A stretch of DNA of 64,000 nt, from NCBI GenBank assembly GCA_963678705.1, contig OY783203.1:23170535-23234534 (forward strand), read 5' to 3'. This DNA is from Panorpa germanica (Eukaryota; Arthropoda; Insecta; Mecoptera; Panorpidae). Both the position numbers and the translations under genes were made by a program. Shown one piece after another: positions 6,438-57,942 of the stretch; the stretch's first letter is position 1, and every line of letters starts with the position of its first letter. The notes beneath the pieces are model-generated. The model worked only from the letters and a program-made list of their open reading frames with translations. It did no database searches and was not told where the DNA came from.

Positions 6438-6930
6438 TTGCAGTGTTTGACAGTGGTCATTGTATAATTTTATGGTACGATTCTTGTGATTTTATTTTTT
6501 TCGATCCATGTATTTTTCTACATATATTTTGTTTTTAATTCTTCTTTTAGTAGAAGTGCTAATAAATGTATTACGACCTTTTTCACAACTGCATTCAGCA
6601 GCGGCATTTTAAAACTGTGATTTCTGAAATGATTTGCTAATAATTTATAAATGGATATTTCGCGCTATTTATTATCTGACGAAAACCAATTTTCCTGTTC
6701 CATTTGAGTGTTGAAAGCATACACTCAAGTGAAATGGATTATTGAGTGTTTTTAATGTGTAGTTTTGAGTATTATCTCTGGTTTTGAGCAGAGATTTGAA
6801 TGGTTGGGATCTTTGGTTGGGATTACAAATGGCGTCAGGTTAAGAAAATAAAGCACAAGCATAAAGAGGTTAGGTTACAATTTGTGAGTCTTAACAATAA
6901 ACTTTAATTTTGGTTAACTAAGAGTGAAAT
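6438..6930. other. AT-rich intergenic sequence
   Basis: No gene seen. A small inverted repeat around 6700-6735 (CATTTGAGTGTTGA / ACACTCAAGTGAAATGG) may be a MITE remnant. Confidence 0.4.
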
Positions 6931-10445: not shown

Positions 10446-10449
10446 TTAT

Positions 10450-20113: not shown

Positions 20114-21032
<919 letters not shown>

Positions 21033-31260: not shown

Positions 31261-31323
31261 TCTACTATTTATAATGTTCGTAATGTTCCAATTTAACATG
31301 AAAAACCCATAAGAACTCATAGA

Positions 31324-31367
<44 letters not shown>
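31261..31367 (+). mobile_element. Helitron family A 5' end followed by (TA)n
   Basis: Starts TCTACTATTTATAATGTTCG after an A, then the conserved subterminal block (GTTCCAATTTAACATG, AACTCATAGATATTTATATA) and a TA run at 31325-31367. Interrupted by the candidate LTR that follows. Confidence 0.75.
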
Positions 31368-31371
<4 letters not shown>

Positions 31372-32256: not shown

Positions 32257-34655
32257 CTAGCGCTTCGCCCCGTCGCAAAGCGACGTGTATTTAATATTTG
32301 TAAATAAATAAAAGTTATTTGATAAATTGAAAACAATGCAAAATATTATTTTTATGTAATTTTCGCTAAAATATATCATTTTTTAAATTTATATTTCCTT
32401 ATTTTGTTATAATTCTTTTATTTACAGTAATAAGGCACTGTATTGACCAGTCTCCAGTGCCCCCGCCCATAAGCCCCAATCGTCACCTCTTGGCTTCATG
32501 CTCTCTTACGTTTCCGAACTTTTATTTTGATTCCTCTAAACTTCCGCCATGGAGCGCCTCCTACTTTTAGCACTCTGCGTCGCTTTTTCCCTGAGCATCG
32601 TCGGTCCTTAGAGTACATTCACAGCGCCCCCGCTGCGTAAAATTATCATTTACCATAATGAAGCACAGTATTGAACAATGTTCACTGCCCCGCCCCTAAA
32701 CACCAATCATCTCTTGGCTACAGCCCACCTGCGCATCATCGCTCATTAGGGCACTTTCCTATCCCCCCCGTTTAGCGCAATCATTAAATTATCCTGCGCT
32801 TCCACCTGCTGCGTACTAATCTCTTAACAATTAGTTTTCAAAATTAATACTTTACTGGCAACCTGCATACTAAATTTCATCCTTAGAAGTACAATATTTT
32901 TTAATATTATTCGATAAGATAAATCTTTGATAAAATTTTCACTAATTTCAATGTAAACCTACTAATTACATCAATTCATTTATGTTTTTAAGAAAGCCTA
33001 GCAGTTCGCTCCTAATAATCTCATCTCTAGTCCTTTTCCTTCACGTTATTGCACTTTCGATTTAATCCCCATACCTCGCCACCCACACTTTCAGCACCAA
33101 AGCACATATTCTGGAACACGGTTACCTCCCAGAGCCATTATAATCTATCGCCACTACTTCTAACACCACCGTTACTTAGTACTGAACCCCAGCGCCACAC
33201 TCTCCTCCAATCAGGCACTACCAATTCGATATTACAGCAATTCATTTACATGATTAAAACTGTACTGTAATCTTACATTCTATATTTCGTATTTATATTT
33301 ACGTTATAATATTAGTCTCCCCATTAATCCCCGCTCCTGAAATAAAATTGTCAAATTTTAGGCATAGCAATCTATTTTGCTCGTGACAACTCTCTCTACC
33401 TTTATCTACCTCTACTTTTATAAATGATCGAAATTTCAAAATTGAGTTCTTTGGCAAAGCTTTTTCCCGCCCCCACTTCCCCAATTTCACGCTGCTACTA
33501 AGGTTAAATTTATTTTCGCAAATATGCACATGCATAGTTTCTATTTTTTCGCTTTTTCTATTTTTTGATATTTGGGCTGTTATCTATTTCCCCCCTATAC
33601 CTTTCACTCCTGTTCGATTTCACAGCACAACAAACGCACCAAAAATCAATTCAATTCTACTACTGAATGTAATTTGAATATCTGACTTATAGAGAACTAT
33701 TTAGCTTCTATTTAATATTCTACATTCAAAATATCATCGTTGTACCTCTATATTGTTCTTATACTCGGTTTATCACCCCCCCCCCACTCTAATGTTCACT
33801 TAAGAAAATGTAGTTTTTTTTATATTTTCGTAATAAATATGTCAATCTATATCTGCATACTAAATTTATGCTTTGTATTTATATTTTAGCATTAGTACCC
33901 CCCACAAACCTCCGCTACTGAACAAGTTTGTTAAATTTTAGCACGGGGATCTATTTTATTTGTATCGAAGAACATATTTTTTAAACTATAGCCCTTCATC
34001 TCTATATATTTCATATTTCTGGTTTTTGGCCCCCAGCGCCCGACGCCTCTGGAAAGTTACAGTTTTCTATAGTTTGTCTTTAACGACACTCTATATAAGG
34101 CCTACGTTCCAAATATCAACGTTCTAGCTCTGTTGCGACATTGGCCCTAAAAAATCACGCCGCTACTGAATTAAAATTTTGGTAATCCAATTATTGGCAC
34201 ACATGCGCAATTAGTGTCTCAATACATATTTTAAGTTTTAATACTACTTTTTCAATATTTCTGGCTTTAACTGTCTCAACTCCCGCCGCCACTGGAAATT
34301 TAGGGCTTTTTATTTTTTTTCTTTAATTACTGTCTACAGCCAGCCTACATATTAAATTTGAACGTCCTAACTCTTTTCTAACATTGCCCCCAGAAATTCG
34401 CGCCGCTACTGAACTCAAATTTCAAATTTCCAACTATTGGAAAATGTGCACAGTTATGATCTCAACACACACACCAAATTTCAGTTTTCTATCTTTTCTA
34501 GTTCGTCAGATATTTGCAAAAGTATTTTTTCGAATTTTTCAGTTTTTCCAGAATAATTTTAGAAAGTCTTAGAAATTCGTCCTTTACATAATATCAAAAT
34601 TTAAAAAACTTTGTAAGCGCCGTTTAGAAGATACCATATACGATTTTCTTACCGG

Positions 34656-34720
<65 letters not shown>

Positions 34721-34783
34721 TCTATGAGTTCTTATGAGTTTTCCATGTTAAATTGGAACAATACGAACATTATAATATTAAGA
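32257..34783 (-). mobile_element. Helitron family A unit H1 (minus), 2.5 kb
   Basis: On the minus strand the 3' end is at 32257: a hairpin with CGTCGC and GCGACG arms around TTT, then GGGGCGAAGCGCTAG. The 5' end is at 34783 (TCTTAATATTATAATGTTCG), directly abutting the CTAG of unit H2. Inside are two or more units of about 245 bp with a GCCGCTACTGAA core, and a (TA)n tract at 34660-34716 just inside the 5' end. No Rep/helicase coding: non-autonomous. Confidence 0.85.
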
Positions 34784-37423
34784 CTAGCACTTCGCCCCGT
34801 CGCAAAGCGACGTGTATATAATATTTGTGAATAAATAAAAGTTATTTGCTAAATTGGAAATAATGCAAAATAATATTTTTAAATAATTTTCGGTAAAATA
34901 TATCATTTTTCAAATTTATGTTTCCTTGTTTTGTTATAATCCTTTCATTTACAGTAATAAAGCACTGTATTGACCAGTCTCCAGTGCCCCCGCCCATAAG
35001 CCGCAATCATCACCTCTTCGCTCCATGCTCTCTTACGTTTCAGAACTTTTAATTTGATTCCTCTAAACTTCCGCCATGGAGCGCCTTCTTCTTTCAGCAC
35101 TCCGTAACGCATCTTCCCTGAGCATCGTCGGTCCTTAGAGTACTTTCACAGCGCCCCCGCTTTAGCACTATAATTAAATAATCCTTCGTTTCCTCCGCTC
35201 TGTGTAAAATTATCATTTACCCTAATAAAGCACAGTATTGAACAATGTCCACTGCCCCGCCCCTAAATACCAATCATCACCTCTTGGCTCCATGCTCTGT
35301 ATCGTTCTCGCACTTTCAATTGTATTCCTCTGCACCTCTGCCACAATGCGCCCACTTGCAACACCACAGCCCACCTAAGCATCATCGCTCAATAAGGTAC
35401 TTTCATATCGCCTTCGTTTTAACGCAATCATTAAATAATCTTGCGCTTTCACCCCCTGCGTACTAATCTCTTAAAAATTAGTTTTCAAAATTAATACTTT
35501 ACTGGCAACCTACATACTAAATTTCATCCTTAGAAGTACATTATTTTTTAATAATTATTCGATAAGATAAATGCTTGATAAAATTAATTTTCACTCATTT
35601 CAATTTAAACCTACTAATTACATCAATTCATTTATGTTTTTAAGAAAGCCTAGCTGTTCGCTCCTAATAATCTCATCTCTAGCCCTTATCCTTCCCGTTA
35701 TTGTACTTTCAATTTAATCCCCTGAACCGCCGCCCACATTTTCAGCACCAAAGCACATATTCTACAATATGGTTACCTCCCAGAGCCATTACAATTTATC
35801 GTTACTTCTTCTAACACCACCGTTACTTGGTGTCCTGAACCCCGGCGCCACCCTCTCCTCCAATCAGGCACTACCAATTCAATATTACAGCAATTCATTT
35901 ACATAATTAAAACTGCACTGTAATCTTACGTTCTAATTTTCGTATTTATATTTACGATATAATATTATTCTGTAACATGGTTACCTCCAAGAGCCATTAT
36001 TAATCTATCGCCACTACTTCTAACACCACCGTTACTTGGTATACTGAACCCCAGCGCCACCCTCTCCTCCAATCAAGCACTACCAATTCGATATTACAGT
36101 TATTCATTTACATAATTAAAACTGCACTGTAATCTTACGTTCTTATTTTCGTATTTATATTTACGATATAATATTAGTCTCCCCATTAATCCCCGCTCCT
36201 GAAATAAAATTGTCAAATTTTAGGCATAGCAATCTATTTTGCTCGTAACAATTCTCTCTACCTTTATTACCTTTATCTACCTCTACTTTTATAAATGATC
36301 GAAATTTCAAAATTGAGCTCTTTGGAAAAGCCTTTCTCGCCCCCACTTCCCCAATTTCACGCCGCTACTAAGGTTAAATTTATTTTTCGCAACTATGCAC
36401 ATGCGTAGTTTATATTTTTTTTAATTTGATATTTGGGGCTGTAAACTATTTCCCCCCTATACATCACACTCCTGTTCGATTTCACAGCACAACAAACGCA
36501 CCAAAAATCAATTCAATTCTACTATTGAATGTAATTTGACTCTCTATCTTATAGAGAACCCCACATACCTGCGCAACTGAACAAGTTTGTCAAATTTTAA
36601 CACAGGGATCTATTTTATTTGTATCTAATATTCTAAACTATAGCCTTTTATCTCTATATATTTCATATTTCTGGTTTTTGGCCCCGAGCGCCCGTCGCCT
36701 CTGGAAAGTTGCAGTTTTCTATAGTTTGTCTTGAATGACACTCTATATAGGGCCCACGTTCCAAATATCAACGTTCTAGCTCTGTTGCAACATTGCCCCA
36801 AAAAAATCACGCCGCTACTGAATTAAAATTTTGGTAATCCAATTATTGGCAAACATGCGCAATTAGTGTCTCAATACATACCCTAAGTTTTAATACTACT
36901 TTTTCAATATTTCTGGCTATTACTGTCTCAACTCCCGCCGCCACTGGAAATTTGGGGCTGTTTATTTTTTTTCATCAATGATTGTCTCGAGCGAGCCTGC
37001 ATATTTAATTTGAACGTCCTAACTCTATTCTAACATTGCACCCGGAAATTCGCGCCGCTACTGAACTCAAATTTCAAATGTCCAACTATTGGCAAATGTG
37101 CACAATTATGATCTCAATACACATACCAAATTTCAGTTTTCTATCTTTTCTAGTTCGTCAGATATTTGCAAAAGTATTTTTTCGAATTTTCCAGTTTTTT
37201 CAAAATATCTTTTTCCAGGGAAATTCAGGGACGTAGAAAGTCTTAGAAATTCGTCCTTTACATAATATCAAAATTTAAAAAACTTTGTAGGCGCCGTTTA
37301 GAAGATACCATATACGATTTTGTTACCGGAAATATATATATTTAAATATATATATAAATATCTATGAGTTCTTATGAGTTTTCCATGTTAAATTGGAACA
37401 ATACGAACATTATAATAGTAAGA
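34784..37423 (-). mobile_element. Helitron family A unit H2 (minus), 2.6 kb
   Basis: Highly similar to H1 along its length, with a short TA tract at 37330-37360. An internal tandem duplication of about 210 bp (TTACCTCC-AGAGCCATTA-type block at about 35770-35960 and 35970-36170) is absent from H1. Ends are as in H1, and it abuts H3 exactly at 37423/37424. Confidence 0.85.
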
Positions 37424-40400
37424 CTAGCGCTTCGCCCCGTCGCAAAGCGACGTGTATATAATATTTATGAATAAATAAAAGTTATTTGGCAAATTGAAAG
37501 TAATGCGAAATATTATTTTTAAGTAATTTTCGCAAAATATATCATTTTTAAAAATTGTGTTTCCTTATTTTGTTATAATCCTTTCATTTACAGTAATAAA
37601 GCACTGTATTGACCAGTCTCCAGTGCCACGCCACTAAGCTCCAATCATCACCTTTTGGCTTCATGCTCTCTAACGTTTCCGAACATTTAATTTGATTGCT
37701 CTAAGCCTCCGCCATAGAGCGCCTCCTTCCTTCAGCACTCTGTATCGCTCTTTGTCTGAGCATCATCGGTCCTTAGAGCACATTCTCAGTGCCCCCGCTT
37801 TAGCGCAATAATTAAATAATTCTTCGCTTCCCACTTCCACCCGCATGCGTACCAATCTCTTAACAATAAATTTTCAAGAATAATACTAATATATTTGATA
37901 AGATAAATGTTTGTTAAAATTTATTTTCACTCGTTTCACTGTAATCTTAGCAATTACATCAATTAAATTATGTTTTTAGGAATGCCTAAGCCCTCGCTCC
38001 AAGACATCTTATCTCTAGCACTTGTCGTTCCCGTTCTTGCACTTTCGATTTAATTCCCCTGCACCGCCACCTACTCTTTCAGCACCATTCTTCTAGCACA
38101 TATTCTACAGTGCGGCTACCTCCCACAGCCACATCCTCTATCGCGCACCACCGCTACTTAGTGTACTGACCCCTAGCTCTATCACCCCCTCCCCCGCTGC
38201 TTAGGCACTTCCAATTCGATACTACAGCAATTCATTTAAATATTTAATACTGAAGTGTACACTTACATTCTAATTTTCATATTTATATTTACGATATAAT
38301 ATTAGTCTTTCTATTTACTCCCGCTACTTAAGTAAAATAGTCAAATTTTAGTCATACCAATCAGTTTTGCTCGTATTAAATATTCTCGTTACCATTTATA
38401 AATGACCGTTTATAGAGACCCTCAACATACTAAGTTTCAAAATTGAGCTCTTTTGCAAATCGTTCCCCGCCCCCACTTCTCCAAATACTCGCCACTACAG
38501 AGGCTAAGTTTTTTTTCGGAAATATGCACATACATAGTTTTAATTTTTTTAATTTGCTATTGACAAACATCCCCTACCCCACCTACCAGCAGCCGCTTTA
38601 GTAGCACTACAAACGCACTAAATATAAATGCAATTCTACTACGGGATGTATGGATGATCTAATCATACCAATTATTCTAATGAAGCACTGTATTAAACAA
38701 TATTCAGTACCCAGATCGTGATCACCACCAATAACAGTCTATTAGCTCTATCATTCCCGTACTTTTAATTTAATTTCGTTGCACCTACACTACGCCAACT
38801 TACAGTACCGCCGCACACGCTCAGCAATTCTCTATCTCTGTTGCACTGACCGCCGTCGCCACTTAGAGTCTCCCGTGCCAAAGCTCAACCAATCATTGCT
38901 CTTCCAATGATATATCCCTTCGCTAACGCCCCCCCTGCGTACCAATCTCTTCAGCAATTTATTTTCAAAATTAATAATTTACTGTTAACCTACATACTAA
39001 ATTTGATCCTTATATGTACAATATTTTTAAGAAGTTAAATTTTAAAAAAGGTTTTAAATGCTTGTTAAAATATATTTTTACCCATTTCTCTCTATATCTA
39101 CCAATTACATCAATTAAATTCTGTAATAAACCATGCTAAGCGCCACGCTCCTAATTGCTCGTTAGCACGTTAGCCCTTGTCGTTCCCATTCTGGCACTTT
39201 TAATGTAATCCCACCGCACCGTCGATCTCATATTCACCACCACGATTCATGATCTAAAATGTCCCTATCCCTCCTTCGAACATTTCGGCCTCTTAGGATA
39301 TTGACGCCGGCGCTCCCTCCCTCCCTCTCGCCACTATAATGCAATATTACTTCTATACTACAGAAATTCATTCAAATAATTAATACGCACTGTAAACTTA
39401 CATACTAAATTTCGTATTTATATCTAGAATATAATATTAGTCTTCTTATTTACCCCCGCCGCTGAAGTAAAATTGTTACATTTTAATCAAAGTAATCTTT
39501 TTTGCTCGTAGTCAACATTTTCTCTAGCTATTTTAAATCACCGTATATAGAGAACCCCACAAATTGAATTTAAAAATTGAAGGTCTTGCAAATCATAAAC
39601 CCCTTGCATGTTTACCAATTTTGCATCGCTACTGATATATGTATAATTATAGTCTCAATAATTAGTTTTAATTTTATTTACATTTGGTACTATTAACCAC
39701 CCCTTTCCCCATCCCTTACCATCCGAATCCGTAGTGTTCTACCTCCAGACCGCTATTAATACAATTTATTAATGGATGTAATTTTTTTTTTAATATTTAT
39801 TTTTAGTCAAGGCCCTAATTATTTTCCGAATAAAAGGAACAAATTTTTTACGTCAAGTCTTTTCAAAGTAGGCGCAGGAATCTTTTTTGTTTGTATCCAA
39901 GACATATATACTAAATCTTAGCTTTTTATCCCCATATATTTCATACTTCCTCTTTTTGGTTTCCGGCGTCAACCCTAACTGGAAATTTGCAGTTTTCTAT
40001 GTTTTCTCTTTAATGACCATCTACCAACGTTTAAAATTTCAATGTTCTAAATTTGTTGTGACCTTGTTCCCAAAAATTCGCGCCGCTACTGAATAAAAAC
40101 TTTGTGGTTTCAATTATTGGCAAATATGCACAATATGTTTCTCAATACATACCCCAAGTTACAATTATCTTTATTTAATATTTTTGGCTTTTACCGTCTC
40201 AACTCCCGCTGCCACTGGAAATTTAGAGTTTTTAATATTTATTCATTAATTACTGTCCACAGCGAGCCTACATACTATATTTCAACGTTGAAACTCTATT
40301 CTAACATTACCCCCAAAAAATCACTTTTAATCCCTTTGCACCGCCACCCACACTTCAAGCAGAAGGACTCATCTCTTGCAGAACAGCTGCCTTCTACCGC

Positions 40401-41074
40401 CACTACTTTATGCGCCAATACTTTAAGCGCCACCTCTACTTAGCGTACTGACCCGCAGCGCCTCCATTCTCCTCGCTGAAGCACTTCCAATTCGATACTA
40501 CAGCCATTCATTTACATAATTATTGCTGCACTGTTAAACTACATTCTATTTTTCATATTTATATTTACGATATAGTATTAGTCTCCCCATTTGCCCCCGC
40601 TACTGAAGTAAAACTGTCAAATTTTAGCCATTGAAATTTATTTTGCTCGTACCAAATATTCTCTTTACCTTTTATAAACAACCGTTTATAGAGACTCTCC
40701 ACATACAAAATTTCAAAATTGTGCCCTATTGCAAAGCTGTTCTTGACATCACTTCCCCAAATTCGCCTCGCTACTGAGGTTAATTCTTTTTCACAATTAT
40801 GGCAAATATGCACATACATAGTTTTCTACTCCTCTTCCTCCCGTCCGATTTCGTAGCACTTTGCCAACAAACGCACAAAATATCAATAAAATTCTTCTAC
40901 TGGATTTAATTTGAATATCTAACATATAGACAACTATTTTTTCTATTTAGTATTCTACATGCAAAATATCACTTTTGTATCCCTACATTGTTATTATACT
41001 CGGTTTATCACCCCCCATTCTAGTGTTACACTTAAGAAAATGTAGTTTTTTTTATATTTTCGTTATTAATAAGT

Positions 41075-41865
41075 TATAAAAAAGGATAAATTTAGAAAAT
41101 TAATTGTTTAGAGATTGGTTCTCATAGTGCTGGAAGCGCAGTAATCCTAATTAGAGGAAAAAATTGAAGACCCCAAATTTCCAGTGGCGGTGGGAGTTGA
41201 AACACTAAAATCTAAAAATATTGAATAAAGAAAATGTTTTCTTGGGACACTAATTGTGCATCATCGCCATTAATTAGACACCAAATTTGGAATTCAGTAG
41301 CGGCGCAAATTTTTGGGGGTAAGAGAGTTAGAATATTTAAATTTGTTATGTAAGCTCCCTTTTGACAGTAACTAATAAAAAAAAAATAGGAAACCCTAAT
41401 TTTCTCGTGGCGCGGGAAGTTGAAACCGTAAAATCTAGAAATTTTGAATAAAGACAATTTTAACTTGGGATATATATATATATATAAGTACACTAATTGT
41501 GAATATTTGCCAATAATTAGAACACCACATATTTTATTCAGTAGCGGCGCGATTGTTAGGGGGTAATGTTAAAATAGAGATTCAACGTTGAAATTTAGTA
41601 TAAAGGCTCGCTGTAGAGAGTAATTAATAAATAAATATTAAAAATTCCAAATTTCCAGTGGCAGCGGGATATGACACGGTAAAATCCAGAAATATTAAAT
41701 AAAGAAAATTTAAACTTGGGGCATGCATTGAGACACAAATGGTGCATACTTGCTAATAATTTGAACACCAACATTTTTATTCAATATCGGCGCGAATTTT
41801 TGGGGACAATGTCACAACAGATTTAGAACGTAGAAATTTGAGACGTTGGTAAATGGTCATTAATC
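41075..41865 (+). mobile_element. Inverted block inside Helitron unit H3
   Basis: Plus-oriented family A sequence with three consecutive units (cores at about 41293, 41540 and 41787, spacing about 246 bp) inside minus-oriented neighbours. It mirrors the block at 43740-44050. Confidence 0.75.
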
Positions 41866-43171
41866 CTCGCTCCTGAAATAAAGTTGTCAAATTTTAGGCA
41901 TAGCAATCTATTTTGCTCGTAACAATTCTCTCTACCTTTATAACCTTTATCTACCTCTACTTTTATAAATAATCGAAATTTCAAAACTGAGCTCTTTGGC
42001 AAAGCCTTTCCCGCCCCCACTTCCTCAAATTTACGCCACTACTGAGGTTCATTTTTCTTTCGCAAATATGCACATACACAGTTTTCAATTTTTTATTTGA
42101 TATTTGGAGCTATTGACTATCTTCTTCTTCCCCACCTACCTACCCGATTTAGTAGCACTACAAACGCACAAAATAAAAATCCAATTTTAATACGGGATGT
42201 AATTTGAATATCTAACATGTAGAGTTTTTTTTTTAAATTTATCTTTATCTACTTCGATCTAATAATACCATTTATTCTAATAAAACACTGTATTGAGAAT
42301 ATTCAGTACCACCAACGACAGTCTATTAGTTCTATTATTACCGTAATTTTAATTTAATTTAGTTGCACCTACACTATAGACGCCAACTTACAGTACCGCG
42401 GCACACGCTCAGCAATCCTCTATCTCTCCTGCACTGAGCGCCGTCGCCACTTGGCGGGAGTACTGTCTCCCGTGCCAATACTTATGTTATTCGAATTAAG
42501 TACCTCTACGCTTCCGCCTGAAATAAATTTTCAAAACTAATACTTTACTGCTATCCTACATACTAAATTTCAACCTTATATGCACATTATTTCTAAGAAG
42601 TTAAATTAAAAATACATATATATAAATGCTTGTTAAATTATATTTTTACCCATTTCACTCTAAACCTATTAATCACATCAATTACATTCTGTAATGAACA
42701 ATATCAAGCGCCACGCTCCTAATCGCTCCTTAGCACTGTGGCCCCTATCGTTTCCATTCTGGCACTTTTAATTTAATCCTACTGCACCGTCCCTATCCAT
42801 CTATCTGAAACGTAGAATATAATATTAGTCTTCTCATTTAATCAAAGTAATCTATTTTGCTCGTACTCTACATTTTCTCTAGCTATTTTAAATCACCGTT
42901 TATAAAGAACCCCACAAATTGAATTTAAAAATTGTAGGTCTGGCAAAGCATAAACTTCCCGAATATTTACAAATTTTGCACCGCTACTGAAATATGTATA
43001 ATTAGAGTCTCAATACTTAGTCTTAATTTTATTTTTTCCACATTTTGGACTATTACCCACCCCTCCTTTCCTCCATCGCTTGCCATCCGGATCCGTAGTG
43101 TTCTGCCTCTAGACGCAACCCCTTTCAATTCAATTTTATAATGTATGTAATTCTTTTTTAATATATATTTT

Positions 43172-43204
43172 TATTGCATTAACTTTAAAAAGTTATTAGC
43201 ACTA
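43172..43204. repeat. Helitron copy of the AGTGCTAATAACTT hairpin, instance 1
   Basis: TTGCATTAACTTTAAAAAGT and TTATTAGCACTAA form a stem; near-identical at 46909-46940 and 50866-50898 (inverted), and similar to the P-element hairpin at 13990-14034. Confidence 0.6.
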
Positions 43205-45348
43205 AAAAAAAATGTATACACATATAAACATTTGCAATACATAATTCATAACTTATTATTTACAACTAATAAACATACTTAAAATAAAGAGATTGAACTC
43301 GGCCTACAAACGCACCATATATCATTCCAATTCTGCTGCTGAATGTATTTTGAACATGTCCAACACATAGAGAACTATTTACCTTCTATTTAATATTCAA
43401 CATGCAAAATATCATTGTCGTACCTCTATATTGTTCTTATATTCGGTTTATCACCTCCTACCCTAATGTTACACTTAGGTAATGTAATTTTTTTTATTTT
43501 CGTTATTAATATATCAATCTATATCTGCATACTAAATTTCAGTTTTGTATTTATATTATACTATTAGTGCTGAAAATAATTTCCGCCACTAAACTAAATT
43601 TGTCAAAGTAGGCACAGAAATCAATTTTGGTTGTACCCAAGACACATATACTAAGTTATAGCCTTTCATCCCCAAATATTTGATATTTCTGGTTTTTCGT
43701 TCCCGGCGCCCACCGTCACTGGAAATTTGCCGTTTTCTATAGTTTGTCTTTAATGACCATTTACCAAAGTCTTAAATTTCAACGTTTTAAATCTGTTATG
43801 ACATTGTCCCCAAAAATTCGCGCCGCTACTGAATTACAAATTTGGTGTCTAATTATTGGCGATGATGCACAATTAGTGTCCCAAGAAAACATTTTCTTTA
43901 TTCAATATTTTTAGATTTTAGTGTTTCAACTCCCACCGCCACTAGAAATTTGGGGTTTTCAATTTTTTCCTCTTAATTAGGATTACTGCGCTTCCACCAC
44001 TCTGAGAACCAATCTCTAAACAATTAATTTTCCAAATTTATCATTTATAACAATAAATGATAATTGGTTAAGAAGGTTAACAAACCTTTATACCAAATTT
44101 CATTTTTAAATAATGGCTCGATAAGATAAATGCATGTTAAAATTTATTTTCAATCATTTCACTGTAAACCATATTAATTTCCCTCTTCCTCCCGTCCGAT
44201 TTCGTAGCACTATACCCACAAATGCACCAAATATCAATCCAAATCTACTACTGGATGAAATTTGAATATCTAACATATAGACAACTATTTTCTTCTTTTT
44301 AGTATTTTACATCCAAAATATCACTTTTGTACCCCTACACTGTTATTATACTCGGTTTATCATCTGCAGCTCTATTGCTACACATTGCAAAATTATGTTT
44401 CCTTATATTTTCGTTATTAATATGTCAATCTATATCTGCACACTAAATTTCAGCTTTGTATTTATATTTTGGCATTAGTACCCCCCACATACCTCCGCTA
44501 CTGTACAAGTTTGTCAAATTTTAGCACAGGGATCTATTTTGTTTGTATCTAAGAACATATATTCTAAACTATATCTATATATTTCATATTTCTGGTTTTT
44601 GCCCCCCTCCCCGTCCGCACCCGCCGCCACTGGAAAGTTGCAGTTGTTTATAGTTTGTCTTTAATGACACTCTATATAGGGCCCATATTCCAAACATCAA
44701 CGTTCTAGCTCTGTTGTGACATTGCCCCTAAAAAATCACGCAGCTACTGAATTAAAATTTTGGTAATCCAATTATTGGCAAACATGCGCAATTAGTGTCT
44801 CAATACATACCCTATGTTTAAATATTACTTTTTCAATATTTCTAGCTTTTACTGTCTCAACTCCCGCTGCCACTGGAAATTTGGGGCTGTTTATTTTTTT
44901 TCATTAATTACTGTCTACAGCGAGCCCACATATTAAATTTGAACGTCCTAACTCTATTTTAACATTGCCCCCGGAAATTCGCGCCGCTACTGAACTCAAA
45001 TTTCAAATTTTCAACTATTGACAAATGTGCACAATTATGATCTCAATACACATACCAAATTTCAGTTTTCTATCTTTTCTAGTTCGTCAGATATTTGCAA
45101 AAGTATTTTTTCGAATTTTGCAGTTTTTCCTGAATAAGTTTTTCCACGGAAATTCAGGGAAAAATTCAGAGACGTAGAAAGTCTTAGAAATTCGTCCTTT
45201 ACATAATATCAAAATTTAAAAAACGATTTAATACGATTTTGTTACCGGATATATATATATAAATATCGCTCTATGTATATAAATATCTATGAGTTCTTAT
45301 GGGTTTTCCATGTTAAATTGGAACATTACGAACATTATAATAGTAAGA

Positions 45349-47490
45349 CTAGCGCTTTGCCCCGTCGCAAAGCGACGTGTGTATAATATTTGTGCTAAAA
45401 TAAAAGTGATTTACTAAATTTACCTTAATGCAAAATATTACTTTTGAGTAATTTTCACTAACATATATCTTTTTTTAAATTTATGTTCCTTTATTTTGTT
45501 CTAAAATTATAATTTTCCGTAATTAAGCATTGTATTGAACAATGTCCAGTTCCCCGCCCCTAAACACCTACCATCACCTCTTGGCTTCATGCTCTGTATC
45601 GTTCCCGCACTTTGAAATTTATTCCTCTGCACGTCTGCCACAGAGCAATACGACACATGCTGAACAGCTATCGCTTCCTCTCTTAGCATCGTCACTCCTT
45701 CGAGCACTTTCCCAGCGCCCCCGCTTTAGCGCTTCTAATTAGCTGCTCCCATTTCCCCAAATTCGAGCCGCTACTGATGGTAATTTTTTTTTCGCAAATA
45801 TGCACACACATACTTTTCACTTTTTCAATTTGATATTTGGGGCTATTGATTATCTCCCCCTTCCCCCGCCAGATTTAGTAGCACTACAAACGCTCCAAAT
45901 AAAAATCCAATTCTACTACGGGATGTAATTTGAATATCTAACATATAGAGCACTTTTTGCTAAACTGTATGCTTTTTAAATTGCTTCCTCCTCCCTACGT
46001 ACCAATCTATTCAGAAATTTATTTTCAAAATTAATACTTTACTGCTATCCTACATACTAAATTTCAACCTTATATGCACATTATTTTTAAGAAGTTAAAT
46101 TAAAAATAAATATATATAAATGCTAGTTAAATTATATTTTTACCCATTTCACTCTAAACCTACCAATTACATCAATTACATTCTGTATTGAACAATACCA
46201 AGCGCCACGCTCCTAATCGCTCCTTAGCACTGTGGCTCCTATCGTTTCCATTCTGGAACTTTTAATTTAATCCTACTGCACCGTCGATCTCATATTCACC
46301 ACCACGATTCATGATCTGCAACGTCCCTAACTCATATAGTTGCTCTCCTCCATCACCCCTGCTTCGAGAATCTCGAGGTTTCTTTTTACCCCGGCGCCCC
46401 ATCCTTCTCGCCCCTCCAATATACTATACTCCCACTTCAATGCTCTAAAAATTCATTTAAGTAATTAATACTGCACTGTAAACTAACATACTAAATTTCA
46501 TATTTATATCTAGAATATAATATTAGTCTTCTCATTTACCCCCGCCGCTGAAGTAAAATTGTCAAATTTTAATCAAAGTAATCTATTTTTCTCGACTTAA
46601 TATTTTCTCTAGCTATTTTAAATCACCATTTATAGAGAACCCCACAAATTGAATTTAAAAATTGTAGGTCTAGCAAAGCATAAACTTCCCGAATATTTAC
46701 AAATTTTGCACCGCTACTGATATATGAATAATTAGAGTCTCTTACTTATATAATACTTAGTCTTAATTTTATTTTTTCCCCATTTGGGACTATTACCCAC
46801 CCCTTCCTCCATCGCTTGCCATCCGGATCCGTAATGTTCTGCCTCCAGACGCAACCCCTATCAATTCAGTTTTATAATGGATGTAATTTTTTTTAAATAT
46901 TTATTTTTAGTGCATCAACTTTAAAAAGTTATTAGCACTAAAAAAAAATGTATACACATATAAACATTTGCTATATATAATTCATAACTTATTATTTACA
47001 ACTAATAAACATACTTAAAATAAAGAGATTGAACTCTGCCTACAATCGCACCATATATCATTCCAATTCTGCTACTGAATGTATTTTGAACATGTCCAAC
47101 ACATAGAGAACTATTTTACTTCTATTTAATATTCAACATGCAAAAGATCATTGTCGTACCTCTATATTGTTCTCATATTCGGTTTATCACCTCCTACCCT
47201 AATGTTACACTTAGGTAATGTAATTTTTTTAATTTTCGTTATTAATATATCAATCTGTATCTGCATACTAAATTTCAGTTTTGTATTTATATTTTAGCAT
47301 TATTGCTAAAAATAATTTCCGCCACTAAACTAAATTTGTCAAAGTAGGCACAGGAATCAATTTTGGTTGTACCCAAGACACATAAACTAAATTATAGCCT
47401 TTCATCCCCATATATTTGATATTTCTGGTTTTTCGTTCCTGGCGCCCACCCTCACTGGAAATTTGCCGTTTTCTATAGTTTGTCTTTAAT
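45349..47490 (-). mobile_element. Helitron family A unit H4 (minus), 3' part; left arm of a palindrome
   Basis: 3' end at 45349 (hairpin, CTTTGCCCCGTCGC variant in plus reading). The sequence to about 47370 is the reverse complement of about 49935-52479 once the Jockey insertion there is removed. Near 47490 orientation flips abruptly at a TTTAATGG|AGAGACTAA junction. Confidence 0.8.
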
Positions 47491-48679
47491 GGAGAGACTA
47501 ATATTATATAGTAAATATAAATACGAAAACTAGAACGTAAGATTACAGTGCAGTTTTAATTATGTAAATAAATTGCTGTAATATAGAATTGGTAGTGCCT
47601 GATTGGAGGAGAGGGTGGCGCTGGGGTTCAGTACTAAGTAACGGTGGTGTGAGAAGTAGTGGCGATAGATTATAATGGCTCTGGGAGGTAACTGTGTTGC
47701 AGAATATGTGCTTTGGTGCTGGAAGTGTGGGCGGCGGTGCATGGGGATTAAATCGAAAGTGCAATAACGGGAAGGATAAGGGCTAGAGATGAGATTATTA
47801 GGAGCGAACCGCTGAGCTTTCTTAAAAACATAAATGAATTAATGTAATTAGTAGGTTTTCATTGAAATGAGTGAAAATTAATTTGATCAAGCATTTATCT
47901 TTTCGAATAATTATTAAAAAATAATGTACTTCTAAGGATGAAATTTAGTATGTAGGTTGCCAGTAAAGTATTAATTTTGAAAACTAATAGTTAAGAGATT
48001 AGTACGCAGGAGGTGGAAGCGCAGCATTATTTAATGACTGCGCGAAAACGGGGGCGATAGGAAAGTGCCCTAATGAGCGATGATGCTCAGGTGGGCTGTG
48101 GTGTTGCAAGTGGGCGCATTGTGGCAGAGGTACAGAGGAATACAATTAAAAGTGCGAGAAATATACAGATCATGGAGCCAAGAGGTGATAATTGGTGTTT
48201 AGGGGCGGGGCAGTGGACATTGTTCAATACTGTGCTTCATTAGGGTAAATGATAATTTTACGCAGGGAGGAAGAAGCGAAGGATTATTTAATTATAGCGC
48301 TAAAGCGGGGGCACTGTGAAAGTACTCTAAGGACCGACGATGCTCAGGGAAGAAGCGATGTTGAGTGCTGAAGGAAGGAGGCGCTCCATGGCGGAAGTTT
48401 AGAAGAATCAAATTAAGTTCGGAAACGTAAGAGAGCATGGAGCCAACAGGTGATGATTGGGGCTTATGGGCGGGGGCACTGGAAACTGGTCAATACAGTG
48501 GTTTATTACTGTAAATGAAAGAATTATAACAAAATAGGGAAACATACATTTAAAAAATGATATATTTTAGCGAAAATTACTTAAAAATAATATTTTGCAT
48601 TATTTTAAATTTAGCAAATAACTTTTATTTATTCATAAATATTATATACACGTCGCTTTGCGACGGGGCGAAGTGCTAG
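47491..48679 (+). mobile_element. Helitron family A 3' half (plus), between palindrome arms
   Basis: Collinear with the reverse complement of H1/H2 from the GAGACTAATATTATA block to the 3' end. It ends with the hairpin and GGGGCGAAGTGCTAG at 48679 and joins the next 5' end without a gap. Confidence 0.8.
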
Positions 48680-48742
48680 TCTTACTATTATAATGGTTGT
48701 AATGTTCCAATTTAACATGGAAAACTCATAAGAACTCATAGA

Positions 48743-48745
<3 letters not shown>

Positions 48746-48797
<52 letters not shown>

Positions 48798-48802
48798 CGA
48801 TA

Positions 48803-48843
<41 letters not shown>

Positions 48844-48848
48844 CGATA

Positions 48849-48905
<57 letters not shown>
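48746..48905. repeat. Higher-order (TA)n array
   Basis: Three TA runs separated by two identical TATAGAGCGATACTTATA spacers, so the microsatellite and its interruption were duplicated as a unit. Confidence 0.85.
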
Positions 48906-48908
<3 letters not shown>

Positions 48909-50105
48909 GTAACAAAATCGTATATGGTATCTTCTAAACGGCGCCTACAAAGTTTTTTAAATTTTGATATTATGTAAAGGACGAATTTCTAAGACTTTCT
49001 ACGTCCCTGCACTTTTCCCTGAATTTCCGTCAGGCTTGCCAATAGTTGGAAATTTGAAATTTGAGTTCAGTAGCGGCGCGAATTTTCGGGGGCAATGTTT
49101 GAATAGAGTTAGGACGTTCAAATTTAATATGTAGGCTCGCTGTAGACAGTTATTAATGAAAAAAAATAAAGAGCCCTAAATTTCCAGTGGCGGCGGAATT
49201 TGAGACAGTAAAAGCTAGAAATATTGAAAAAGTAGTATTAAAACTTAGGGTATGTATTGAGACACTAATTGCGCATGTTTGCCAATAATTGGATTACCAA
49301 AATTTTAATTCAGTAGCGGCGTGATTTTTTGGGGGCAATGTCACAACAGAGCTAGAACGTTGATGTTTGGAATGTGGGCCCTATTTAGAGTGTCATTAAA
49401 GACAAACTATAGAAAACTGCAACTTTCCAGAGGCGGCGGGAGCTGGGGGCCAAAAACCAGAGATATGAAATATATAGAGATGAAAGGGTATAGTTTAGAA
49501 TATATGTTCTTTGAAACAAGCAAAATAGATCCCCGTGCTAAAATTTGACAAACTTGTTCAGTAGCGCAGGTTTGTGGGGGCTACTAATGCTAAAATATAA
49601 ATACACAGTGAAATTAAGTATGCAGATATAGATTGACATATTAATAACGAAAATATAAAAAAAAAAAATTTCTAATGTGTAGCATTAGAGCAGGGGGTGA
49701 TAAACCGAGTATAATAACAATGTAGGGGTACAAAAGTGATATTTTGCATGTAGAATACTAAATAGAAGAAAATAGTTGTCTATATGTTAGATATTCAAAT
49801 TTCATCCAGTAGTAGATTTGGATTGATATTTGGTGCGTTTGTAGGCAAAGTGCTACGAAATCGGACAGAAGGAAGAGAGAAATTAATATGGTTTCAGTGA
49901 AATGAGTGAAAATAAACTTTACAACCAAAATTGATTCCTGTGCCTACTTTCACTAATTTAGTTTAGTGGTGGAAATTATTTTTAGCAATAATGCTATAGT
50001 ATAAATACAAAACTGAAATTTAGTATGCAGATACAGATTGATATATTAATAACGAAAATTAAAAAAATTACATTACCTAAGTGTAACATTAGGGTAGGAG
50101 GTGAT

Positions 50106-50116
50106 AAACCGAATAT
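50106..50116. repeat. 11-bp target-site duplication, left
   Basis: AAACCGAATAT, repeated exactly at 50620-50630 on the other side of the Jockey insertion. Confidence 0.9.
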
Positions 50117-50619
50117 TTTTTTTTTATTTACAAGGTAATTACAACTAAGCAAATTTGCTTATCTAGCAATTTTTATATATAATAAGTACAATACGTATTC
50201 CAGATCCAATCCACTGACTAGTTCCGAAAGATTTATATTACACACTTCTTATTGTGTGGTACAGTGGTAGATATCACAGGGTCAGGTCTTGAGGCTTGGT
50301 CCTCTTCAATCTACGCAGATCTGTTCTCGTATCGAGTAACTGCAATATTTCATTGTTGTGGTGGTCTTGTAGACGTAGCAAATGTCTACTCGCTGCCTTC
50401 TTGATTTCATCGTCTACGGTGGGCATCTTTAAGTCACGATGTAGATTTTCATTTCTGATGTACCATGGCGCATCTGTAATACTACGCAGTACTTTATTTT
50501 GAAACGTTTGTATTTTCTTCAAATTGGTTTTCTTGGTACAACCCCACAGTTGTATACCATAGGTCCAAATGGGTTTCAGTATTTGGTTGTATAATACCAG
50601 CTTGTTATGCACGGTCAGC
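50117..50619 (-). mobile_element. 5'-truncated Jockey-type non-LTR retrotransposon
   Basis: 503-bp insertion on the minus strand. The open frame, ending with TGA at about 50274, encodes the C-terminal part of ORF2: LVLYNQILKPIWTYGIQLWG, then KIQTFQNKVLRSITDAPWY and LHRDLKMPTVDDEI, the conserved post-RT region of insect Jockey elements. About 125 codons read without a break. A 3' UTR of about 150 nt ends in an A-run (T-run at 50117-50126 on plus). The 11-bp duplication and intact frame indicate a recent insertion that is 5'-truncated and immobile. It dates the Helitron sequence as older. Confidence 0.92.
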
Positions 50620-50630
50620 AAACCGAATAT
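50620..50630. repeat. 11-bp target-site duplication, right
   Basis: AAACCGAATAT, partner of 50106-50116. Confidence 0.9.
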
Positions 50631-52479
50631 AAGAACAATATAGAGGTACGACAATGATATTTTGCATGTTGAATATTAAATAGAAGTGAAATAGTTCTCT
50701 ATGTGTTGGACATGTTCAAAATACATTCAGCAGCAGAATTGGAATGATATATGGTGCGTTTGTAGGCAGAGTTCAATCTCTTTATTTTAAGTATGTTTAT
50801 TAGTTGTAAATAATAAGTTATGAATTATGTATTGCAAATGTTTATATGTGTATAAATTTTTTTTTAGTGCTAATAACTTTTTAAAGTTGATGCACTAAAA
50901 ATAAATATTTAAAAAAAATTACATCCATTATAGAACTGAATTGATAGGGGTTGCGTCTGGAGGCAGAACACTACGGATCCGGATGGCAAGCGATGGAGGA
51001 AAGGGGTGGGTAATAGTCCCAAATGTGGAAAAAATAAAATTAAGACTAAGTATTATATAAGTAAGAGACTCTAATTATTCATATTTTAGTAGCGGTGCAA
51101 AATTTGTAAATATTCGGGAAGTTTATGCTTTGCCAGACCTACAATTTTTAAATTCAATTTGTGGGGTTCTCTATAAACGGTGATTTAAAATAGCTAGAGA
51201 AAATATTGAGTACGAGAAAAATAGATTACTTTGATTAAAATTTGACAATTTTACTTCAGCGGCGGGGGTAAATGAGAAGACTAATATTATATTCTAGATA
51301 TAAATATGAAATTTAGTATGTTAGTTTACAGTGCAGTATTAATTACTTAAATGAATTTTTAGAGCATTGAAGTGGAAGTATAGTATATTGGTGGGGCAAG
51401 AGGGAGGGGGTGCCGGGGTCAAAAAAGAGGCCGTTATACTCGAAGCAGGGGTGATGGAGGAGAGCAACTATATGAGTTAGGGACGTTGCAGATCCTGAAT
51501 CGTGGTGGTGAATATGAGATCAACGGTGCAGTGGGATTAAATTAAAAGTGCCAGAATGGAAACGATAGGGGTTACAGTGCTAAGGAGCGATTAGGAGCGT
51601 GGCGCTTGGCATTGTTCATTACAGAATATAATTGATGTAATTGGTAGGTTTAGAGTGAAATGGGTAAAAATATAATTTACCAAGCATTTATATATATTTA
51701 TTTTTAATTTAACTTTTTTAAAATAATGTGCATATAAGGTTGAAATTTAGTATGTAGGATAGCAGTAAAGTATTAATTTTGAAAATAAATTTCTGAAGAG
51801 ATTGGTACGTAGCGAGGCGGAAGCAATGATGATACAAAGATAAATTTTAAAAAGCATATGGTTTTAGCAAAAAGTGCTTTAAATGTTAGATATTCAAATT
51901 ACATCCCGTAGTAGAATTGGATTTTTATTTGGTGCGTTTATTGTGCTACTAAATCTGGCGGGGGAAGGGGGAGATAGTTAATAGCCCCAAATATCAAATT
52001 GAAAAAGTAAAAACTATATGTATGTGCATATTTGCGAAAAAAAAATTACTATCAGTAGCGGCGCGAATTTGGGGAAATGGGAGCAGCTAATTAGAAGCGC
52101 TAAAGCGGGGCGCTGGGAAAGTGCTCTAAGGAGTGACGATGCTAAGGGAAGGAGCGAAAGCTGCTCAGCATGTGTTGTGGTGCTCTGTGGCAGACGTGCA
52201 GAGGAATAAATTCCAAAGTGCGGGAACAATACAGAGCATGAAGCCAAGAGGTGATGATAGGTGTTTAGGGGCAGGGAACTAGACATTGTTCAATACAATG
52301 CTTAATTACGGAAAATTATAATTTTAGAACAAAATAAAGGAACATAAATTTTAAAAAAGATATATGTTAGTGAAAATTACTCAAAAATATTATTTTGCTT
52401 TAAGGTAAATTTAGTAAATCACTTTTATTTAATCACAAATATTATACACACGTCGCTTTGCGACGAGGCGAAGCGCTAG

Positions 52480-52700
52480 TCCTATATTATAATGTTGCAG
52501 GTGTATATTTATTCTATATTATAATGTTCCAGGTGTATATTTATCCTATATTATAATGTTCCAGGTGTATATTTATGATCTTATATTCTTATAGTCTTAT
52601 CCTTTATTATAATGTCCCAGGTGTATATTTATGATCTTACCCTATATTATAATGATCCAAGTGTATATTTGTATGTTTTCTTTACTCTTATAATGTTCGT
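52480..52700 (+). repeat. Array of about five tandem Helitron 5' ends
   Basis: The 5'-terminal motif TATATTATAATGTTCCAGGT, with its TGTATATTTAT continuation, recurs at about 52480, 52513, 52546, 52611 and 52640. A family A 5' end (CTTATAATGTTCGTAATGTT) follows near 52685. Each repeat keeps only the first 30-55 bp of an element. Confidence 0.85.
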
Positions 52701-54445
52701 AATGTTCCAATTTAACATGGAAAATGATAACAAAATCGTATATGGTATCTTCTAAACGGCGCTTACAAAGTTTTTTAAATTTTGATATTATGTAAAGGAC
52801 GAATTTCTAAGACTTTATACGTCCCTGAATTTTTCCCTGAATTTCCGTGGAAAAACTTATTCTATAAAAACTGGAAAATTCGAAAAAATACTTTTGCAAA
52901 TATCTGACGAACTAGAAAAGATAGAAAACTGAAATTTGGTATGTGTATTGAGATCATAATAGTGCACATTTGCCAATAGTTGGAAATTTAAAATTTGAGT
53001 TCAGTAGCGGCCCGAATTTCCGGGGGCAATGTTAGAATAGATTTAGAACGTTTAAATTTAATATGTAGGCTCGCTGTAGACAGTTATTTATGAAAAAAAA
53101 TAAACAGCCCTAAATTTCCAGTGGCGGCGGAAGTTGAGACAGTAAATGTCAGAAATATTGAAAAAGTAGTAATAAAACTTAGGGTATGTATTGAGACACT
53201 AATTGCGCATGTTTGCCAATAATTGGATTACCAAAACTTTAATTCAGTAGCGGCATGATTTTTTAGAAGCAATGCCGCAGCAGAGCTAGAACGTTGATAT
53301 TTGGAATGTGGGCCCTATTTAGAGTGTCATTAAAGACAAACTATAGAAAACTGCAACTTTTCAGAGGCGGCGGGCGCTGGGGGTCAAAAACCAGAAATAT
53401 GAAATATATAGAGATGAAAGGCTATAGTTTAGAATATATGTTCTTAGATACAAACAAAATAGATCCCCGTGCAAAAATTTGACAAACTTGTTCAGTAGCG
53501 GAGGTATGTTGGAGGTACTAATGCTAAAATATAAATACAAAGCTGAAATTTAGTATGCAGATATAGATTGACATATTAATAACGAAAATATAAAGAAACA
53601 AAATTTTCTAATGTGTAGCATTAGAGCAGGGGGTGATAAACTGAGTATAATAACAATGTAGGGATACAAAAGTGATATTTTGCATGTAGAATACTAAATA
53701 GAAGAAAATAGTTGTCTATATGTTAGATATTCAAATTTCATTCAGTAGCAGATTTGGATTGATATTTGGTGCGTTTGTAGGCAAAGTGCTACGAAATCGA
53801 AATAGAGGAGTAGAAAACTAGAACAGCTTTATAATAGACCTCAATTTTGAAATTTAGTATGTAGAGAGTCTTTATAAACGGTCATATATAAAAGTTAGTG
53901 AGAATATTTGGTACGAACAAAATAAATTCCAATAACTAAAATTTTCCAATTTTACTTCAGTAGCGAGGGTAAATGGGGAGACTAATATTATATCGTAAAT
54001 ATAAATATGAAAAATAGAATGTTGGTTTACAGTGCAGCATTAATTATGTAAATGAATGGCTGTAGTATCGAATTGCAAGTGCTTCAGCGAGGGGGTGGAG
54101 GCGCTGGGGGTCAGTAAGATAAGTAGGGGTGCGCTAAGGAAGGTAGCTGCTCTGCAAGATATGAGTCGTTGTGCTTGAAGTGTGGGTGGCGGTGCAGAGG
54201 GATTAAATCGAAAGTGCAAGAACGGGAACGAAAAGGGCTAGAGTGGCAAGTAGCAGAGGGCGCTGGGGTTAGGGATGATTATGAACGAGGAGCCGAGCAC
54301 GGTTAACAGCAGAAATTAATAAGGTTTACAGTGATATAAGTGAAAATAAATTTTAAGATGCATTTATCTTATCGAGCCATTATTTTAAAATGAAATTTGG
54401 TATGTAGGTTAACAGTAAATAATAAATTTGGCAAATTAGCGCAAG
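52701..54445 (+). mobile_element. Helitron family A, plus, 3' truncated
   Basis: Collinear with H5 from the subterminal GGTATCTTCTAAACGGCGC block. Cores at about 53007, 53246 and 53499 continue the 245-bp periodicity. The match ends near 54445 without hairpin or CTAG, so it is broken here. Confidence 0.7.
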
Positions 54446-57589: not shown

Positions 57590-57942
57590 TATTTAATTAG
57601 TTATAATGCTACTAAGCTCCGTGCAATAATTTTATCAATTTGCAAAAAAATTGTCAAATAGGTTCAGCCGTTCTCAAGTGATGCAATTACCAACGAATAG
57701 CAATTAATTTTTATTTATATAGATAAGGAATTTGTTAAATGAGATAATTTTTTTTCATAATTAATACAAATAATTGAAAAATTGAAAATAATACAAATTG
57801 AAAAAAATATTTTTTTTTTATATTATGTAAAATAAATATGGAACGAGTTAAATATTTCAATTTAAAAATGGAATAAACTTTGAAATGAAATTCAACCCAC
57901 ATATAAAAGACAGTCGTCGTTTGCGACGGGGGTAAACTCTAG
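57590..57942 (+). mobile_element. Helitron family B 3' end
   Basis: Contains GGTTCAGCCGTTCTCAAGTG, a sequence common in insect Helitron tails. It then matches 21600-21720 and ends with the GTCGTTTGCGAC hairpin and GGGGGTAAACTCTAG at 57942, followed by T. No 5' end was found within several kb. Confidence 0.7.

What the first reader, a model, noticed from the sequence alone, without database searches (positions are those of the whole stretch)
32257..52479. Array of Helitrons joined end to start with exact CTAG|TC junctions
At 34783/34784, 37423/37424, 45348/45349, 48679/48680, 52479/52480 and, in another cluster, 23815/23816, the CTAG 3' end of one element is followed with no spacer by the TC 5' end of the next. 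Each intact 3' end has a CGTCGC-TTT-GCGACG hairpin about 13 bases before CTAG. Seen directly. Helitrons are known to insert between A and T and to form occasional tandems. A 20-kb block with several precise junctions in both orientations suggests rolling-circle concatemers or repeated self-targeting at the 3' T.
Basis: partly seen in the sequence, partly recalled or inferred. Interest (0 to 1): 0.75.

Follow-up and report, generated by a model that had tools for sequence, protein, structure and literature searches.

The report
Helitron transposons stacked end to start
In this genome one family of rolling-circle transposons usually sits exactly in front of another copy's start, so that stacks of unlike elements build up; tandem Helitrons were known, but here stacking is the usual state, and it hints at where the transposase prefers to insert.

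Summary
The joints are real: all six CTAG|TC joints are exact, and a seventh, decayed one lies at 57942/57943. The hairpin-CTAG spacer is 10 nt, not 13. Genome-wide there are 818 exact 3' ends of this family: 815 have T next, 518 TC, and 599 the 5'-end core TATAATG within 14 nt. Random A^T insertion predicts under 0.1. Stacking is this family's usual state.

The block is not a rolling-circle concatemer: neighbours are 74-90% alike, and B is closer to dispersed copies. Many joints link different families. Best reading: serial insertion at the A^T made by the base before a resident and the T of its 5' TC, or just inside that end. For: 39 of 40 un-stacked 5' ends follow A; three separate insertions at TCA^TATATT; one imperfect filled/unfilled contrast. 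Against: no age polarity; no reads. One array grew by unequal exchange. Tandem Helitrons are known in bats, plants and fungi; the extent, and the family contrast (63% versus 10% CTAG|TC), look new.

The parts
32257..34783 (-). Helitron unit B, 2527 bp, TCTTAATATTATAATG...CTAG; free 3' end CTAG|T in an (AT)n tract
34784..37423 (-). Helitron unit A, 2640 bp, TCTTACTATTATAATG...CTAG; abuts B exactly
37424..45348 (-). Helitron unit C, 7925 bp, mosaic interior; abuts A exactly
45349..47491 (-). Helitron unit G, 5'-truncated, 3' subfamily shared with E; abuts C exactly
47486..47491 (.). join of two truncated elements in opposite orientation, about 6 bp shared by both alignments
47486..48679 (+). Helitron unit D, 5'-truncated, 92% to the 3' part of A; abuts E exactly
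48680..52479 (+). Helitron unit E, 3800 bp, 5' end of the A/B/C kind and 3' end of the G kind; abuts F exactly
52480..54445 (+). Helitron unit F, double 5' end (TCCTATATT minisatellite, then a TCTTAC-like 5' end at about 52680), 3' end lost; right edge approximate
20221..21723 (+). sister-family ('C-family') Helitron in an (AT)n tract: A|TCCTATATTATAATG ... GCGACGGGGGTAAAAGCTAG|T; contains an internal duplication with a second 3' end at 21032
23798..23830 (+). joint 23815/23816: decayed 3' end followed by TCCTATATTATAATG
57905..57954 (+). seventh joint 57942/57943: sister-family 3' end CTAG|TATATTATAATG (first bases of the 5' end missing)
31261..31368 (+). 5'-end fragment A|TCTACTATTTATAATG... 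ending in (AT)n

Best explanation
The block is a stack of non-autonomous canonical Helitrons (here 'T-family': 5' TCTTAC/TCTAC..TATAATGTTCGTAATG, 3' GCGACGRGGCRAAGYGCTAG), probably moved in trans by RepHel elements such as those whose ends belong to a sister family ('C-family': 5' TCCTA/TCATATATTATAATG, 3' GCGACGGGGGTAAAAGCTAG). New copies insert by the ordinary rule, between A and T, but preferentially at the A^T formed by the base in front of a resident Helitron and the T of its 5' TC, or at an A^T a few bases inside that 5' end. This regenerates an A|TC site each time, leaves CTAG|TC joints with no spacer, and stacks unlike elements head to tail. Shown: exact joints, T after CTAG, unlike neighbours, joints between families, A before un-stacked 5' ends, reuse of one internal A^T site. 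Inferred: that new units come in on the 5' side at most joints; that the transposase's own binding or nicking of resident 5' ends makes them acceptors; that RepHel acts in trans. Secondary, shown at one locus: unequal exchange duplicates blocks of an existing stack.
For: Genome counts: 818 3' ends; 815 with T at +1; 518 CTAG|TC; 599 followed within 14 nt by TATAATG. Random A^T insertion would give 0.008-0.035. Sample of 98 of the first 100 listed 3' ends: 70 exact joints, 12 trimmed or mutated 5' ends (L087 doubtful), 7 inside another member, 9 other; after dropping 14 repeated joints that I picked by eye, 58/10/7/9 of 84. Neighbours unlike: 37 of 45 adjacent same-strand pairs under 98% identity. 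Nearly identical 3' ends (>=99%) abut different 5' ends at different loci. Of the 12 C-type downstream ends among the first 30 loci (1.5 kb read each), 9 lead into sister-family bodies. 39 of the first 40 listed 5' ends not preceded by CTAG follow A; 157 of 226 TCTACTTATT 5' ends follow A. Three pairs CTAG|TCA|TCTTAC...CTAG|TATATTATAATGTCCC read as the two sides of insertions at TCA^TATATT, inserts' 3' ends 80-89% alike. A repeat flank is followed directly by TCTACTATTT residents in three places but by two extra elements and then a TCTACTATTT resident in a fourth. RepHel link: PF14214 E=2.4e-61 inside an element with sister-family ends.
Against: Terminal branch lengths show no polarity: 14 pairs with the downstream unit younger, 15 with the upstream unit younger; stacking strictly on the 5' side predicts upstream younger. 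In the window C looks oldest and B youngest (branch 0.091, 0.047, 0.031), which by itself favours addition on the 3' side there. Non-array neighbours are slightly more alike than shuffled ones (81.4 versus 77.1%, p=0.024). The paralogous contrast is not a clean empty site: only about 120-150 bp of flank is shared with the stacked copy, resident bodies differ beyond 67-226 bp in two of three cases, and one of the three (L166) has a variant of the diagnostic letters. The third TCA pair (L105/L104) is 5.8 kb apart and its middle was not read; a fourth end of that kind (L026) has no partner in the sample. For insertions between two existing elements, G^T cannot be told from A^T. Only 291 of 1031 own-family 5' cores follow CTAG (reversed control 0 and 6), partly because 5' fragments and double 5' ends are in excess. 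219 of 818 3' ends are not followed by the 5' core. No reads or second genome were available.
Confidence: 0.66

Rival explanations
1. Rolling-circle concatemers: a Helitron circle or run-through replication makes head-to-tail multimers that insert in one event.
For: Helraiser makes circles with exact CTAG/TC joints (PMC4778049, passages); tandem arrays have been read this way in bats and plants (PMC5876387 and PMC12628747, passages). 8 of 45 adjacent pairs are >=98% identical, e.g. C1:10875020-10882534 (99.7-100%).
Against: 37 of 45 adjacent pairs are unlike. Window neighbours are 74-90% alike while B is 96% to a dispersed copy. Joints between different families cannot be one element's multimer. 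The one near-identical array read in full is a three-unit higher-order repeat with internal differences.
Confidence: 0.09
2. Insertion at the 3' end: the new element lands after a resident CTAG, at its G^T, with the same final joint.
For: Gives identical joints. In the window, unit age by terminal branch falls from C to A to B towards the 3' side. A maize case was compatible with it (PMC2267711, passages). Helraiser does not use AT absolutely (46 of 1,751 insertions elsewhere; TT, AC and AA the most prominent alternatives).
Against: 39 of 40 un-stacked 5' ends have A in front. Insertions just inside 5' ends use A^T. The paralogous contrast adds units between flank and resident. No overall age polarity in either direction.
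Confidence: 0.15
3. Helitron circles recombine homologously with resident copies, giving tandem units that are chimeric, with the circle's own joint.
For: E has a 5' part like A/B/C (about 93%) and a 3' end of the other subfamily (about 73% to A-D), i.e. it is mosaic.
Against: Does not explain joints into sister-family bodies nor the paired flanks around TCA^TATATT. Mosaicism can also come from later gene conversion or template switching.
Confidence: 0.06
4. Ordinary tandem duplication or unequal crossing-over spread a few founding joints.
For: Three-unit repeat at C1:15743481-15769854 (u1-u4 99.95%, u2-u5 99.82%); alternating two-unit spacing at C1:9509212-9522336; shared flanks at several places.
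Against: After dropping 14 repeated joints the share of exact joints is still 58 of 84; the sample falls in 51 clusters, 42 with an exact joint.
Confidence: 0.03
5. Assembly artefact.
For: No reads could be inspected.
Against: Window units differ by 6-28% in their last 420 nt; the joints occur in hundreds of places with many partner combinations.
Confidence: 0.01

Closest known systems
Head-to-tail Helitrons in maize (PMC2267711; passages read)
   Same: CTAG|TC joint with no spacer between two unlike Helitrons, read as consecutive insertions; the authors named both the G^T and the host-A/resident-T options
   Different: A single pair there; here 518 of 818 3' ends, with evidence leaning to the A^T option
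Tandem Helitrons of Myotis and plants (cited in PMC5876387 and PMC12628747, passages; the primary papers were not seen)
   Same: Head-to-tail tandem arrangement and arrays
   Different: Those are read as rolling-circle products, in plants often arrays with several 5' ends and one 3' end; here most adjacent units are unlike, and each sampled unit ends in CTAG by construction of the search
Self-insertion of Helitrons in Fusarium/Metarhizium (PMC5148889; passages)
   Same: Insertion at or near another element's 5' end; elements with several 5' termini, like unit F
   Different: Helitron2-like termini and a few cases there; canonical TC...CTAG ends and hundreds of cases here
Clustering of maize Helitrons near other Helitrons (Yang and Bennetzen 2009, cited in PMC12477314, passage; the paper itself is not held)
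   Same: Preference for the neighbourhood of other Helitrons
   Different: Here base-exact, at the resident's 5' end
Helraiser/Helibat1 (PMC4778049; passages)
   Same: A|TC and CTAG|T target rule, 3' hairpin, RepHel
   Different: No preference for resident Helitron ends is stated in the passages seen

Membership tests
canonical Helitron (Helitron1) | 5' TC and 3' CTRR termini | tested here: met
   TC...CTAG in units A, B, C, E
canonical Helitron (Helitron1) | hairpin shortly upstream of the 3' end | tested here: met
   CGTCGC-TTT-GCGACG, 10 nt before CTAG; read from the sequence, not folded
canonical Helitron (Helitron1) | insertion between A and T without target-site duplication | tested here: met
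   T at +1 in 815 of 818; A before 39 of 40 non-joint 5' ends; no duplicated bases in the paired flanks at TCA^TATATT
canonical Helitron (Helitron1) | RepHel transposase in an autonomous relative with matching ends | tested here: inconclusive
   PF14214 in an element with sister-family ends in L123, with broken frames; the T-family 3' end was not found in the 13 other Rep-bearing loci L001-L013
canonical Helitron (Helitron1) | rolling-circle replication | not testable with these tools
   needs an activity assay or circle detection
rolling-circle Helitron concatemer array | adjacent units are copies of one element | tested here: not met
   window pairs 74-90%; in the sample 37 of 45 adjacent pairs under 98%, 8 at 98% or more
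Helentron / Helitron2 | non-TC/CTRR ends and T-rich target (as in PMC5148889) | tested here: not met
   ends are TC...CTAG, target is A^T

The most novel reading that the evidence does not exclude
Resident Helitron 5' ends are the programmed target of this family: the RepHel enzyme that nicks A^TC to start transposition leaves the same nicked A/T end that a target must have, so any resident 5' end is also an acceptor, and one lineage (63% CTAG|TC) uses it six to seven times more often than its sister lineage (10%): an end-directed, host-sparing 'home' site.
Probability: 0.4. Interest if true: 0.68.

Novelty: new variant of a known kind. Interest (0 to 1): 0.5.

Why it matters
Head-to-tail Helitrons have been cited as support for rolling-circle transposition. 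Here a large natural series suggests that most such joints are separate insertions of unlike elements, with the target at the resident's 5' end. If the enzyme's own 5'-end nicking creates the acceptor, this is a directly testable feature of Helitron target choice, a way a transposon can spare host genes, and a route to composite elements with several 5' ends and to satellite-like arrays.

Tried and rejected
Concatemer origin of the window block: rejected by neighbour identities. Age polarity along stacks: tested, no signal. A strict 5'-side order in the window was not supported (branch lengths C > A > B). Reading the seventh joint as coincidence: less likely, because CTAG|TATATTATAATG recurs. 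Coding capacity of unit C: the one frame tried carries 223 stops; no stop-to-stop frame of 120 aa or more lies in the block except 50274-50675, which has no Pfam match. Thirteen Rep-bearing loci (L001-L013) showed no T-family 3' end. 5'- and 3'-end sampling followed the order of the hit lists (C1 and the start of C2), so it is not random. Literature: the listings of searches (titles and starts of abstracts) showed no report of a genome in which most 3' ends of a Helitron family abut another 5' end; subscription papers are mostly not held, so this is weak evidence of absence.
Full report
WHAT WAS CHECKED. The six joints were read directly and all ends mapped with mismatches on both strands. Every stated joint is exact. 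On the - strand the order is G (45349-47491, 5'-truncated), C (37424-45348), A (34784-37423), B (32257-34783); on the + strand D (47486-48679, 5'-truncated), E (48680-52479), F (52480 to about 54445, 3' end lost). B ends CTAG|T in an (AT)n tract. The hairpin CGTCGC-TTT-GCGACG lies 10 nt before CTAG. The opposite orientation of the two halves comes from a join of two truncated units at 47486-47491, so 'both orientations' is a rearrangement, not a property of the joints. A further decayed joint lies at 57942/57943.

UNITS ARE UNLIKE. Over the last 420 nt, B, A, C and D are 86-92% alike, G and E are 94.5% alike, and the two groups are 72-73% alike, whereas the first 900 nt of A, B, C and E are about 92-94% alike. 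So E is a mosaic, and stacks mix subfamilies. With 98 genome copies added, B's nearest relative is a dispersed copy (96.0%) and not A (89.7%); G and E group with a dispersed copy, L040.

GENOME-WIDE COUNTS. The window is C21:23170535-23234534 of a 464-Mb assembly. The exact 3' end GCGACGRGGCRAAGYGCTAG occurs 818 times, reversed-pattern control 0. T follows in 815, TC in 518, and TATAATG, the core of the 5' ends, within 14 nt in 599. A few of the 599 look like chance (such as L028), and a few TC are not family 5' ends (such as L015). A random A^T insertion model gives 0.008-0.035 hits. The sister family's 3' end GCGACGGGGGTNAANNCTAG occurs 3510 times; TC follows in 335 and TATAATG within 14 nt in 758, as CTAG|TATATTATAATG in 57 of the 100 listed, counted by eye. 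So one family is CTAG|TC at 63% and its sister at 10%.

SAMPLE. 98 of the first 100 listed 3' ends were read (the two not read are C2:6259620 and C2:6264313). The sample is ordered by contig, not random. T follows in 98 of 98. Exact joint with a family 5' end: 70; trimmed or mutated 5' end: 12 (L087 doubtful); inside another member: 7; other DNA: 9. Dropping 14 repeated joints, picked by eye, leaves 58, 10, 7 and 9 of 84; the sample forms 51 clusters (12-kb rule), 42 with an exact joint. By a loose motif test the next 5' end is of the sister kind in 42, of the own kind in 38 and unassigned in 18 of 98. Of the 12 sister-kind ends among the first 30 loci, with 1.5 kb read each, 9 run into sister-family bodies and 3 (L016, L018, L032) into own-family bodies.

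CONCATEMER TEST. Of 45 adjacent same-strand pairs within 9 kb (98 sampled ends plus 6 of the window), 8 are at least 98% alike in the last 400 nt and 37 are not; of the 32 pairs outside three regular arrays, 3 are. Mean identity of the 32 is 81.4% against 77.1% shuffled (p = 0.024), so neighbours are slightly but not closely related. Copies with nearly identical 3' ends abut different partners (e.g. L016, L096, L098, L102). The array at C1:15743481-15769854, the only one read in full, repeats with a period of three units (u1-u4 99.95%, u2-u5 99.82%, u0-u3 99.19% over the shared part, but u1-u2 99.17%), the mark of unequal exchange in an existing stack. For the other near-identical runs a concatemer origin stays open.

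WHERE THE NEW UNIT LANDS. (i) Of the first 40 listed own-family 5' ends not preceded by CTAG, 39 follow A and 1 follows G; 12 of the 40 were classed as lying in or after another 5' end. TCTACTTATT ends follow A in 157 of 226. 291 of 1031 cores TATAATGTTCGTAATG follow CTAG at 5-13 nt (reversed controls 0 and 6). (ii) Three pairs read CTAG|TCA|TCTTAC ... CTAG|TATATTATAATGTCCC (L020/L019, L025/L024, L105/L104, 2.8, 2.9 and 5.8 kb apart); together the flanks match the uninterrupted end TCATATATTATAATGTCCC seen at L016, L096, L099 and L100; the inserted units' 3' ends are only 80-89% alike, so these look like separate events at one A^T. L026 is a fourth such end without a partner in the sample. (iii) A repeat flank is followed directly by a TCTACTATTT element in three places (L164 and L165 with the letters CCATTTTAACATG, L166 with a variant), but at C1:7628795 by two other elements and then by a TCTACTATTT element with CCATTTTAACATG (L167, then L035/L168). 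This fits two additions between host A and resident TC, with the caveats given under evidence against. (iv) Branch lengths give no polarity (14 versus 15).

MECHANISM. In the accepted scheme (PMC4778049, passages) the transposase cuts between the flank and TC at the 5' end, inserts between A and T, and joins CTAG to T. A resident 5' end, A^TC, is by itself a valid target. The inferred step is that enzyme binding or nicking there raises its use. It is not shown here.

FAMILY. TC...CTAG ends, hairpin, A^T target and RepHel-linked sister ends (L123: PF14214, E = 2.4e-61) place it with canonical Helitrons; an autonomous copy with exactly these 3' ends was not found. 150 Rep matches of 893 candidates were scored in the genome.

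LITERATURE. Seen as passages only: PMC2267711, PMC5876387, PMC12628747, PMC5148889, PMC12477314, PMC4778049, PMC13286980, PMC6544945, PMC2374699, PMC12368964. Pritham and Feschotte 2007, Xiong 2016 and Yang and Bennetzen 2009 are known here only through those texts. Tandem Helitrons are therefore known; what is added is the extent, the unlike partners, the evidence for the 5' target and the contrast between sister families. That the genome is an insect's is my inference from its genes and size, not a tool result. On re-checking the calls, the caveats on the paired and paralogous sites grew, and the confidence of the best explanation was lowered slightly, from 0.68 to 0.66.

Noticed in passing
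33180-46616 and 49036-53817 (many places): The element interiors hold diverged repeats with spacings such as 243 and 209 bp, several carrying a TTCAGTAGCGG-like motif by eye; they may be captured satellite-like DNA.
   Followed up: partly
52480-52700: Unit F carries two kinds of 5' end in a row, an outer TCCTATATT minisatellite and an inner TCTTAC-like end, as expected if one element inserted near another's 5' end and both ends later moved together.
   Followed up: partly
50274-50675 (- strand): Open frame of 133 aa inside unit E that resembles the end of a Jockey-type reverse transcriptase by my recollection; no Pfam match.
   Followed up: no
one search list (G000): 25 of the 150 scored Helitron_like_N matches lie in open frames of the same length, 1119 codons (counted by eye), 22 of them with the same score, which suggests recently active RepHel elements elsewhere in this genome.
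   Followed up: no
C1:9509212-9522336: Regular array of alternating 3.1-kb and 1.9-kb units in a two-unit repeat, followed at C1:9529247-9537168 by four units in the other orientation.
   Followed up: partly
C1:7585190, 7590938, 7628795, 7650921: A host repeat ending in TTTTTACA or TTTTCACA sits directly before Helitron 5' ends at four places, as if flank and element start were copied together.
   Followed up: partly
4951-6440, 10449-11036, 25993-26644: Another dispersed repeat family in the window, about 86-95% alike.
   Followed up: no
17479-18501 and 27420-27800: A thiolase gene (Pfam Thiolase_N/C) and a glutaredoxin-like gene lie in the same window.
   Followed up: no
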